Source of the DNA: a virus | Strand: one strand, 5' to 3' | DNA: 29,403 nt | Virus record (IMG/VR): IMGVR_UViG_3300027963_000242 | Location: 1-29,403 of that record | Shown: positions 4,510 through 15,031 of the stretch, in pieces | How positions within the stretch are numbered: the first letter of the stretch is position 1 | How the letters are laid out: each line of letters opens with the position of its first letter | Program-made: the position numbers and the translations under genes | The notes under the pieces: generated by a model | What the model saw: the letters and a program-made list of their open reading frames with translations, nothing else | Databases searched by the model: none | What the model was told of the DNA's origin: nothing

Positions 4510-4698
4510 TTAAATTAATACAACAATTTTACCATCAATAGTCTTTATATCATTAGATTCGTATTCAAACTCAACAAATTTTTGATTAAGTATGTATTCG
4601 TTAATAGATTCGTTTATAGGATAACAACTCAAACATTCTATAATCGGTGTTGTTGTTGATTTATATTTATAATATCCTATTTCATAACCCCATATCAT
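4510..4698 (-). CDS. Small hypothetical protein overlapping the flavodoxin-like gene
   Basis: About 62 residues if started at the ATG at 4698, which overlaps the last 17 bases of the flavodoxin-like gene in another frame. The product begins MIWGYEIGYYKY and ends IKTIDGKIVVLI. It has two cysteines close together (ECLSC) and an acidic, aromatic middle (KFVEFEYESND). In-frame ATGs lie further up at 4746, 4752 and 4908, but those versions sit deep inside the flavodoxin-like gene and add a Lys/Leu-rich stretch typical of an out-of-frame shadow. I therefore prefer the short form. I do not recognise the family. It probably uses translational coupling from the upstream gene. Confidence 0.5.
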   Translation of the reverse strand: MIWGYEIGYYKYKSTTTPIIECLSCYPINESINEYILNQKFVEFEYESNDIKTIDGKIVVLI

Positions 4699-5449
4699 CA
4701 ATGAATTTTTTGTGGGATTTTTTGTAAGAAGATTTACTTTCGTCATACGCATCGGTTGTATATTGCCAATTCCAATATAGTTCTTTATTAGGACTAAATC
4801 CATAGAATTTGTGGACCTCTTTTTGAATTTCTGTAACATTTTCACCATTCCAATTTTGACCAACACAAATAAAACCTGTTTCAATATCTTTAACAATATT
4901 TTTTTCACCTAAAGTGGTATGCATGTTTTCGATCCAATTTAATCTTTCTATTAGATTTTGATAAAACATATTGGCTTGTCCCCACCTTACTGAACTAAAG
5001 AATACCACAGCGTCTGATTCAAATAATTCTTTACTGATCTTCCATAATTCATCAGTTTTATTATTTAAACTTGCCCAACACCTATGATGACCTGAAGGGT
5101 TTTTTTTATCATCTTTAAGTAATGATTTTAAAATACCACAACTATTCCCTTCTTCCCTTGAAACATTACCTTCACAAGGAAATATTTTAAGTTCTGACAC
5201 ATCCATAAATACAGATTTTTTTCCAAGTTCCTCATTCAAATACATTGCAAGTATCTTTGATTTTGGAACGTCTATCTTTTTAGGATCCCAATTAAATCTA
5301 TTTGAGCAACTCAACAATAAAACTTTGTCTTTTTTTTGTAGAATGTCTAAAGTTTGTTTTAATTTTTTTGCACCATCTTCTTGGACTAGTTCTTCCAAGA
5401 GCATCATTTTTCTAATCTTTTGAATTTCTTCTTGAATAATGTTTGACAT
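4682..5449 (-). CDS. Flavodoxin-fold oxidoreductase (NAD(P)H-dependent FMN reductase-like) with N-terminal extension
   Basis: 255 residues. From about residue 41 it looks like a flavodoxin-fold FMN reductase: a KVLLLSCSNRFN strand and phosphate-binding loop (C48-N53), then AVVFFSSVRWGQANMF (148-162), the usual Ser-Pro-x-Tyr-Trp-Gly-type flavin loop leading into a helix, then a third strand GFICVGQNW (192-200). Cysteines at 48, 92, 104, 124 and 195 do not form the compact cluster of iron-sulfur flavoproteins, but C92/C104/C124 might bind a metal or form disulfides. The first 40 residues are an extra helix (EEIQKIRKMMLLEE) ahead of the fold. It lies after nrdA but behind a terminator and next to an AAACTATTTAT motif, so it appears to belong to the late block. 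It is not clearly NrdI. The substrate is unknown. Confidence 0.72.
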   Translation of the reverse strand: MSNIIQEEIQKIRKMMLLEELVQEDGAKKLKQTLDILQKKDKVLLLSCSNRFNWDPKKIDVPKSKILAMYLNEELGKKSVFMDVSELKIFPCEGNVSREEGNSCGILKSLLKDDKKNPSGHHRCWASLNNKTDELWKISKELFESDAVVFFSSVRWGQANMFYQNLIERLNWIENMHTTLGEKNIVKDIETGFICVGQNWNGENVTEIQKEVHKFYGFSPNKELYWNWQYTTDAYDESKSSYKKSHKKFIDDMGL

Positions 5450-5453
5450 ACAA

Positions 5454-5464
5454 ATAAATAGTTT
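5454..5464 (-). promoter_or_regulatory. Late-type motif AAACTATTTAT upstream of the flavodoxin-like gene
   Basis: Exact copy of the 11-mer on the minus strand, only 4 nt before the ATG at 5449 and downstream of the terminator that ends the nrd operon. At this spacing a -10 element would give a leaderless or nearly leaderless transcript, so either such a transcript or a non-promoter role must be considered. Confidence 0.4.
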
Positions 5465-5485
5465 AGATATGTAAAAAAACTAATA

Positions 5486-5513
5486 AATAAAAAATCCCGA
5501 CATAGCTCGGGAT
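5486..5513 (-). terminator. Rho-independent terminator after nrdA
   Basis: On the minus strand a perfect 7-bp stem ATCCCGA/TCGGGAT (5507-5513 with 5494-5500) with a 6-nt loop is followed by a T-run. It lies 26 nt after the nrdA stop and closes the replication/nucleotide operon. Confidence 0.88.
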
Positions 5514-14121: not shown

Positions 14122-14805
14122 TTATGAATTAAATCTGTTTAATAAAATATCGTCTTCATCTTCCATTGGTTCATTAAATGATTGTTCAATATCAGAAGGA
14201 CTAAAGTTTTCAACTTCGTCTTGTGTTAAGACATATTCATTTTTACCTGTTTTTTCCATTTCTTCTTCTTTGTCTTTAAAGAAGTCTGACAAGTTTTGTT
14301 TGAATGGTCCTGAATCTAAAGATCGTAATTGTAGTTTTTCTTGTGCCGTTCTTGGTCTATATTTTTCTACTTTAGCATCTAAAGAATCAATTTTAGAAAC
14401 TAAACTATCCATCTCGGCCAATTTTTCTTCCATTTTTTGAATTTGACCAAACAAGTTGTTAAAGTATTCTTCTTGTTTGTCTGCCATAGTTTTTTGAGAG
14501 TCAACTAAGTCTGTGATGTCTAACTCTTCAGTTTCTCCTTCACCTTCTTTTCCAACTTCTTCAACATCAGGATCTGCAGCAACATCAATCGGTTCTCCTT
14601 CAGGGGCTGCTGGTGGGGCTGGTGCCGCACCTGCATCAGGTGCCGGTGCTCCTCCCGCCGCAGGATCGGCAGGTGGTGGTGGAACGTCTCCTCCTGCCGC
14701 AGGATCAGCTGGCGGTGGTGGTAGTGGTGCGTCTTGTTCCATTATATATTTGTTGATACTTCTATATCTTTCAATTTCATTTAATATTTTTTCGTCTATT
14801 CTCAT
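14122..14805 (-). CDS. Pro/Ala-rich acidic coiled-coil protein, possible prohead core component
   Basis: 227 residues, no family recognised. Three parts: an N-terminal helix (DEKILNEIERYRSINKYIME, 4-23); a low-complexity Pro/Ala/Gly linker (about 25-75) with two copies of PPPPADPAAGG; and an acidic region with a coiled coil (QEEYFNNLFGQIQKMEEKLA and DSLVSKIDSLDAKVEKY) ending in an acidic tail with DEDD. The N-terminal helix resembles that of the flavodoxin-like protein (EI-x-[RK]-x-R pattern followed by Glu). High acidity, a coiled coil and small size fit an internal scaffold or core protein, but this is inference. It starts 1 nt after the stop of the 74-residue gene and ends at a strong terminator. 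Confidence 0.85.
   Translation of the reverse strand: MRIDEKILNEIERYRSINKYIMEQDAPLPPPPADPAAGGDVPPPPADPAAGGAPAPDAGAAPAPPAAPEGEPIDVAADPDVEEVGKEGEGETEELDITDLVDSQKTMADKQEEYFNNLFGQIQKMEEKLAEMDSLVSKIDSLDAKVEKYRPRTAQEKLQLRSLDSGPFKQNLSDFFKDKEEEMEKTGKNEYVLTQDEVENFSPSDIEQSFNEPMEDEDDILLNRFNS
14650..14721. repeat. GC-rich direct repeat encoding PPPPADPAAGG twice
   Basis: Two in-frame copies encode residues 29-39 and 42-52 of the Pro/Ala-rich protein. The stretch is much richer in G+C than the surrounding AT-rich genome, because of the CCN and GCN codons. Units of this type are prone to copy-number change. Confidence 0.85.
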
Positions 14806-14806
14806 C

Positions 14807-15031
14807 TTATCCGTTTAATAATGTTTTTATACCACTTTTGGTTTCAACTTGTATTTTTCTAAATTGTTTCATGGTGTTGTCAACTCTTTCAATAAGACCA
14901 TCTTTCATTCTTAATGTATAACAGTCGCCAGTGTCTAAATCACAAACTTGTTTAGTTCCGTCACCATTATCTTTCTCTGAAACTCTTGTGTTTTTACCCA
15001 AGTAGTTATCTAATAATATTTTTGTGTTCAT
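14807..15031 (-). CDS. Hypothetical small protein
   Basis: 74 residues, family not recognised. Two cysteines flank an acidic turn (CDLDTGDC, about residues 30-37), followed by strands (YTLRMKDGLIERV) and a basic C-terminal half (KQFRKIQVETKSGIKTLL), so it looks like a small beta-rich protein. It is followed after 1 nt by the Pro/Ala-rich gene, and the two share the motif upstream of 15031. The preceding giant gene ends 21 nt before its start. Confidence 0.8.
   Translation of the reverse strand: MNTKILLDNYLGKNTRVSEKDNGDGTKQVCDLDTGDCYTLRMKDGLIERVDNTMKQFRKIQVETKSGIKTLLNG

What the first reader, a model, noticed from the sequence alone, without database searches (positions are those of the whole stretch)
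4682..5464. A flavodoxin-fold enzyme placed in the late structural block, with an extra N-terminal helix
Position after nrdA suggests an RNR helper, yet a strong terminator separates the two, and the gene has its own AAACTATTTAT motif and is followed by gp25- and gp6-like genes. Ahead of the FMN-binding loop (C48-N53) are 40 extra residues forming a charged helix ending in LLEE, similar in character to T4 capsid-targeting leaders, which are cut after [LI]-x-E. A redox enzyme carried inside the virion or acting late would be unusual. Seen: motif, terminator, extension. Inferred: packaging.
Basis: partly seen in the sequence, partly recalled or inferred. Interest (0 to 1): 0.65.

Follow-up and report, generated by a model that had tools for sequence, protein, structure and literature searches.

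The report
Redox enzyme with capsid-packaging leader
A large uncultured phage carries a flavin-reductase-like enzyme whose first 19 residues resemble the cleavable tags that T4 uses to load proteins into its head, and related phages put the same kinds of tag on many other proteins, so this enzyme is probably packed in the virus particle and injected into the host.

Summary
The gene is real: 4682-5449 (-), 255 aa, in a fragment of a T4-like phage group distantly related to Flavobacterium phage immuto. The body is predicted to be an FMN reductase/quinone-reductase-type flavodoxin fold. Across 67 distinct homologous N-termini the leader sequence changes, even in type, but every one meets the body at [LI]-x-E (one V-S-E), the T4 gp21 prohead-protease rule. 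The same leader types occur on at least 90 N-termini in nine related genomes, almost only at N-termini, on thioredoxin, polyphosphate kinase PPK2, lysozyme, peptidoglycan hydrolases and many unknowns. These viruses encode a gp21-type (S77) protease, and their capsid proteins carry the same [IL]-[NS]-E junction. Leader genes are enriched for the TATTTAT upstream motif. In other genomes the enzyme lies beside capsid or terminase genes, or among leader genes, not next to nrdA. Best reading: a capsid-targeted, protease-trimmed internal virion enzyme delivered at infection. Packaging and cleavage are inferred, not shown. It is a new variant of the T4 internal-protein strategy.

The parts
4682..5449 (-). 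255-aa protein: leader plus flavodoxin-fold (FMN reductase-like) enzyme
   Evidence: ORF; more than 300 relatives in IMG/VR; fold
5393..5449 (-). Leader, residues 1-19 (MSNIIQEEIQKIRKMMLLE), predicted propeptide; cleavage predicted after E19 (L-L-E)
   Evidence: [LI]-x-E junction in 66 of 67 distinct homologous N-termini, V-S-E in the other; same leader type on unrelated proteins; pN/pS 0.078
4682..5392 (-). Predicted mature enzyme from E20; includes conserved helix 25-38 and five invariant Cys (48, 92, 104, 124, 195)
   Evidence: Alignment A3; model m0db71e21a3a3
5454..5464 (-). AAACTATTTAT, late-promoter-like motif, 4 nt upstream of the ATG
   Evidence: TATTTAT present upstream in 32 of 67 distinct homologous leaders
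5484..5513 (-). Intrinsic terminator separating nrdA from this gene
4510..4698 (-). 62-aa ORF overlapping the stop of the enzyme gene; probably co-expressed; function unknown
   Evidence: Homologous sequence in 50 loci; similar small ORF in G001 at 149985-150161
14122..14805 (-). Second protein in the window with a possible leader (MRIDEKILNEIERYRSINKYIME|QDAPLPPPP...), acidic coiled-coil-like
   Evidence: Sequence; G002 homologue ends ...INNYITE|Q; score with leader model B is only 2.7 bits, so visual similarity only

Best explanation
The protein is a late-expressed internal virion enzyme. Residues 1-19 form an amphipathic helix that works like a T4 capsid-targeting sequence: it draws the protein into the prohead core, and the phage's gp21-type (S77) protease then cuts after E19 in L-L-E, freeing a ~236-residue FMN-dependent NAD(P)H reductase inside the head. 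On infection it would be injected with the DNA and act before phage genes are expressed, most plausibly as a reductase of quinones or flavins, or as a guard against oxidative or redox-based defence. Shown by computation: gene, fold class, leader conservation and swapping, junction motif, protease, shared leaders, motif enrichment. Inferred: packaging, cleavage, injection, substrate.
For: 1) 67 distinct homologous N-termini: leaders of clearly different sequence (MSNIIQEEIQKIRKMMLLE, MNLQENIQRIREMMISE, MISLTEIVREIMLNE, MSDIRLKIKEEVLKFRKEILSE, MGNLNEEISRIKSIMGVITE), yet all meet the conserved body at [LI]-x-E, once V-S-E. 2) Leader models A (LTESDLVRIVKRVI-x-E) and B (NLQENIQRIREMMGLNE): 90 N-termini of 2416 at >=10 bits against 7 of 6486 internal segments; models of only the first 12 columns find proteins with [LI]-x-E in the next 10 residues in 44/56 and 29/33 cases, against 9-12% in controls. 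3) Leaders sit on thioredoxin, PPK2, lysozyme, M23 and glucosaminidase. 4) Leader exchange on another protein: the 'RYMFFSNL' protein carries different leader types in different genomes. 5) S77 protease in 13 of 23 related records (one record, G005, was searched in both). 6) gp23-like capsid proteins have LINE|S, LINE|A, LLNE|S or IVSE|V at the gp23 cleavage region. 7) TATTTAT upstream: 53/90 leader genes against 390/1667 others, Fisher p 5e-12. 8) In G014 the enzyme is about 1.4 kb from the capsid gene, in G017 near the terminase gene, in G013 and G016 among leader genes. 9) gp21 cuts after L/I-X-E and a 10-residue CTS suffices for packaging in T4 (PMC9026906); T-even internal proteins are diverse with only a conserved CTS (PMC3012670).
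Against: No proteomic data. TATTTAT also precedes the dnaB helicase in the window, so it is not exclusive to late genes. Leader HMM seeds were picked by eye with patterns that included the final acidic residue; the 12-column test reduces but does not remove this circularity. Leaders are longer than T4's 10 residues and no homology to them was shown. Peptidoglycan hydrolases among leader proteins could mean another destination. Model confidence is moderate (mean pLDDT 69.8; 93-129 below 50).
Confidence: 0.68

Rival explanations
1. A cytosolic redox helper of the phage ribonucleotide reductase (electron donor or NrdI-like activator), encoded next to nrdA; the N-terminal helix is merely structural.
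For: nrdB-nrdA-enzyme-gp25 order in 59 of 153 loci; flavodoxin fold; residues 25-38 are part of the domain.
Against: In 61 loci with room on both sides neither nrdA nor gp25 is found nearby, and five more have gp25 without nrdA upstream; terminator and own promoter-like motif in between; the related phage immuto has nrdBA without the enzyme beside it; leader shared with unrelated proteins; length and fold hits are FMN/quinone reductases, not NrdI.
Confidence: 0.13
2. The leaders are a real shared targeting module but for another destination: tail or baseplate, inner membrane or periplasm, or a phage-made compartment; the [LI]-x-E ending is a helix cap or cut by another protease.
For: Several leader proteins are peptidoglycan hydrolases; leaders are amphipathic helices; in the window the gene sits beside baseplate genes.
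Against: The junction matches the capsid-protein junction down to N/S at P2; S77 protease present; most leader genes are not next to tail genes.
Confidence: 0.14
3. The shared N-termini reflect frequent recombination of a 5' gene segment (start region and promoter) with no function at the protein level.
For: Promoter-like motif and leader often occur together.
Against: Strong protein-level selection on residues 2-19: pN 0.047, pS 0.601, ratio 0.078, lower than the core's 0.109.
Confidence: 0.05

Closest known systems
T4 internal proteins IPI, IPII, IPIII and Alt with capsid-targeting sequences (CTS)
   Same: N-terminal leader ending in [LI]-x-E; diverse proteins sharing only the leader; genome encodes a gp21-type protease; enzyme cargo has precedent (Alt ADP-ribosyltransferase) (PMC9026906, PMC3012670)
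   Different: Leaders about 15-23 residues, several interchangeable sequence types, no shown homology to the T4 CTS; many more bearers per genome; redox and PPK2 cargo; packaging untested
FMN-dependent NAD(P)H reductases / quinone reductases (Pfam FMN_red; SP1951 1sqs/2oys, indigo reductase 6jxn, SsuE, AzoR, NQO1, WrbA)
   Same: Predicted five-stranded flavodoxin-like fold with an FMN-loop position at 47-53; Foldseek best E 5.5e-5
   Different: No significant Pfam hit for the window protein (FMN_red E 0.22; best member 0.011); loop SCSNR-x-N; long insertion 88-132 with Cys 92/104/124; TM-scores only about 0.4-0.6
Ejection proteins with propeptides of giant phages (phiKZ, SPN3US)
   Same: Proteins packaged with the DNA and trimmed by a prohead protease (PMC5694885, PMC10052503)
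   Different: More diverged protease; no shared exchangeable leaders were compared here
NrdI flavodoxin of class Ib ribonucleotide reductase
   Same: Flavodoxin fold; beside nrdA in about 40% of the loci
   Different: NrdI in a jumbo phage is 134 aa (PMC10638138) against 255 aa here; link to nrdA not conserved; not among the listed fold matches

Membership tests
T4-type capsid-targeted internal protein | N-terminal leader with a gp21-type cleavage site [LI]-x-E | tested here: met
   66 of 67 distinct homologous N-termini, V-S-E in the other
T4-type capsid-targeted internal protein | Same leader shared by otherwise unrelated proteins of the same virus | tested here: met
   90 bearers in nine related genomes; in the window itself only a weak second case
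T4-type capsid-targeted internal protein | Genome encodes a gp21-family (S77) prohead protease | tested here: met
   Found in relatives that carry the enzyme; the window fragment does not contain the head genes
T4-type capsid-targeted internal protein | Sequence homology to the T4 CTS | not tested
   No alignment to the T4 CTS was run; a 10-residue CTS would be too short for a meaningful homology test
T4-type capsid-targeted internal protein | Protein present in the virion head and cleaved | not testable with these tools
   Needs mass spectrometry of virions
FMN_red / flavodoxin-like quinone reductase | Flavodoxin-like alpha/beta fold | tested here: met
   Model pTM 0.75; top Foldseek hits are FMN or quinone reductases
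FMN_red / flavodoxin-like quinone reductase | Curated profile score | tested here: not met
   FMN_red 11.5 bits against a cut-off of 24; so it is not filed as an FMN_red member, only as having that fold
FMN_red / flavodoxin-like quinone reductase | FMN binding and NAD(P)H oxidation | not testable with these tools
   Needs the purified protein
NrdI / RNR helper | Conserved operon with nrdA | tested here: not met
   61 loci with room show neither nrdA nor gp25 beside it

The most novel reading that the evidence does not exclude
A group of large T4-like phages, probably infecting Bacteroidota, uses a modular set of exchangeable, protease-removed N-terminal leaders to load a large, fast-changing cargo of proteins, including redox enzymes (this FMN reductase, thioredoxin), a polyphosphate kinase and cell-wall hydrolases, into the head for injection: a capsid-borne effector arsenal readable from sequence alone.
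Probability: 0.58. Interest if true: 0.8.

Novelty: new variant of a known kind. Interest (0 to 1): 0.66.

Why it matters
If the leaders are capsid-targeting propeptides, they label the internal virion cargo of an abundant, mostly uncultured group of large phages directly in the sequence. That would turn many hypothetical proteins into candidate injected effectors, show that phages deliver ready-made redox and energy enzymes before their own genes are expressed, and provide new leader/protease pairs for packaging foreign proteins.

Tried and rejected
Pfam, PHROGs and NCBIfam on the window protein: nothing. PDB by sequence: only 1sqs at E 0.16 and one unrelated chain; the profile of the core: nothing. 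tblastn against cultured phages with the whole protein: no real match; with 23-residue leaders alone: nothing, though such short, compositionally biased queries are probably unsuited to BLAST. Cellular homologues: 17 pattern matches, none confirmed, but only two peptide patterns were usable, so absence is weakly supported. A first strict leader regex found few cases and was replaced by profile models. Literature searches for these leaders or for a virion-packaged flavodoxin found none; the library holds only open-licence papers. A jumbo phage paper naming flavodoxin proved to be a NrdI annotation, not a virion protein. The RNR-helper reading was rejected as the main one because the nrdA linkage is not conserved.

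Full report
What the window is. The window is a 29.4-kb virus contig. All long genes lie on the minus strand: gp32, uvsX, RNase H, DnaB helicase, nrdB, nrdA, the gene in question, gp25, a gp6-like wedge protein and large tail proteins. Part of this order (gp32, recombinase, exonuclease, helicase, nrdB, nrdA) is also found in Flavobacterium phage vB_FspM_immuto, which lacks the enzyme beside nrdA. The capsid proteins of larger relatives have immuto among their best cultured matches, at 41% identity. A Bacteroidota host is therefore likely but not shown.

The observation. The 255-aa ORF 4682-5449 (-) is real and has more than 300 relatives in IMG/VR (173 confirmed, 312) but none in annotated phage genomes. 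The AAACTATTTAT motif at 5454-5464 and the terminator at 5494-5513 are as described. In the window, TATTTAT occurs within 60 bases upstream of 7 of 18 genes: mostly tail or baseplate genes, also dnaB and the gene ending at 15031, and not nrdA, nrdB, uvsX or gp32. It resembles a late promoter but is not proven to be one.

The enzyme. Two AlphaFold models, with 18 and 44 sequences, agree on a flavodoxin-like fold (pTM 0.72 and 0.75). Fold search puts SP1951 (crystallised with FMN), indigo reductase, SsuE, AzoR, quinone reductases and WrbA at the top; the best viral matches are a WrbA and an NADPH-dependent oxidoreductase. Sequence profiles give only faint support (FMN_red, best E 0.011). C48, C92, C104, C124 and C195 are invariant across 44 diverse members. 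The stretch 93-129 is modelled with low confidence, so a metal or disulfide site there cannot be judged. The substrate is unknown; quinone or flavin reduction is inferred from the fold.

The leader. In 154 loci I found 68 distinct N-terminal readings, 67 with a usable start. Residues 1-18 vary widely between lineages and even change type, but the junction to the conserved body is [LI]-x-E in all but one, which has V-S-E (two apparent exceptions come from a mis-called start; they read L-Q-E). The model shows helix 3-17, a weak hinge at 20-23, then a confident helix 25-38 that belongs to the domain. The true extension is thus about 19 residues, with E19 as the predicted last residue. Among close relatives the leader evolves under strong protein-level constraint (pN/pS 0.078 against 0.109 for the core).

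The same leaders elsewhere. I fetched nine related virus genomes or large fragments, 56-294 kb. Two leader models, 'LTESDLVRIVKRVI-x-E' (A) and 'NLQENIQRIREMMGLNE' (B), match 90 gene starts at 10 bits or more, against 7 internal segments among 6486, some of which may be mis-called starts. Models restricted to the first 12 columns still pick proteins that have [LI]-x-E within the next 10 residues in 79% and 88% of cases, against 9-12% in controls, with N or S the commonest middle residue. Bearers include thioredoxin (E 1.1e-21), PPK2 (E 1.8e-72), phage lysozyme, M23 peptidase, a 1006-aa glucosaminidase/M23/VanY protein and a peptidoglycan-binding protein; most have no known family. One protein family ('RYMFFSNL') carries different leader types in different genomes, as the enzyme does, which suggests that the leaders are functionally interchangeable.

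The protease and the capsid. A Peptidase_S77 (T4 gp21) gene was found in 5 of 12 records and 8 of 12; apart from the window itself and one record searched twice, the rest without it may be fragments. It lies with portal-, scaffold- and gp23-like genes. The gp23-like proteins align with mature T4 gp23, and just ahead of the conserved region they carry LINE|S, LINE|A, LLNE|S or IVSE|V, the same [IL]-[NS]-E pattern as the leaders. In G002 a leader ends YVNE|STSTGDAGSY, close to the G001 capsid LINE|STSTADSGSF. In T4, gp21 cuts after L/I-X-E, and the first 10 residues of IPIII suffice for packaging (PMC9026906); the T-even internal proteins are diverse and share only the CTS (PMC3012670).

Context and timing. 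nrdA and gp25 flank the enzyme in 59 of 153 loci, but 61 loci with enough sequence have neither. There the enzyme sits, for example, about 1.4 kb from the capsid gene (G014), near the terminase gene (G017), or in a run of leader genes (G013, G016). TATTTAT lies upstream of 53 of 90 leader genes against 390 of 1667 others (odds ratio 4.7, p 5e-12).

Conclusion. The pattern is that of T4 internal proteins: diverse cargo, shared N-terminal leader, prohead-protease junction, late-type expression. I judge it 68% likely that this enzyme is targeted to the prohead, cut after E19 and delivered with the DNA. Computation shows the gene, the fold class, the leader family, the junction and the protease; packaging, cutting, injection and substrate are inferred. 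It works like a CTS-tagged internal protein; formal membership awaits proteomics.

Noticed in passing
L214:18394-18774 (G012:151394-151777): Thioredoxin (WCGPC, PF00085 E 1.1e-21) with an N-terminal type-A leader ending VISE|Q: a second candidate packaged redox protein.
   Followed up: partly
L088:6306-7403 (G001:25806-26906): Polyphosphate kinase 2 with a leader ending SLNE|S; PPK2 also occurs in G002 and G005, and a PPK2-like protein in the 642-kb phage LR756502 begins MINNFIKFINE|E.
   Followed up: partly
L266:11719-15209 (LR756502.1): In a 642-kb uncultured huge phage, neighbouring genes begin with short N-termini such as MKYLKRFNE|E, MENIKSFDSFNE|K and MQYIKKFEDLDF: possibly another leader type.
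   Followed up: no
L126:25470-25865 and L128:14631-15095 (immuto): The cultured Flavobacterium phage immuto has two proteins starting MKKQILSEQF-RMQ-LAGIITE|S, a leader-like N-terminus testable in the laboratory.
   Followed up: partly
window 4510-4698 (-): 62-aa ORF with a C-x-x-C (CLSC), overlapping the enzyme's stop codon; homologous sequence in 50 loci.
   Followed up: partly
L259:1087-4104 (G016:39087-42107): 1006-aa protein with glucosaminidase, VanY and M23 domains behind a leader (MKRIILTESQYKRLIKKNLNE|Q): a possible packaged cell-wall hydrolase.
   Followed up: partly
G001:1186-2847 (L087): Four similar small genes in a row, each starting MKY[LI]ITESQ[IL]D..IFKYLDNQDF: a duplicated family with a leader-like start but no [LI]-x-E.
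   Followed up: no
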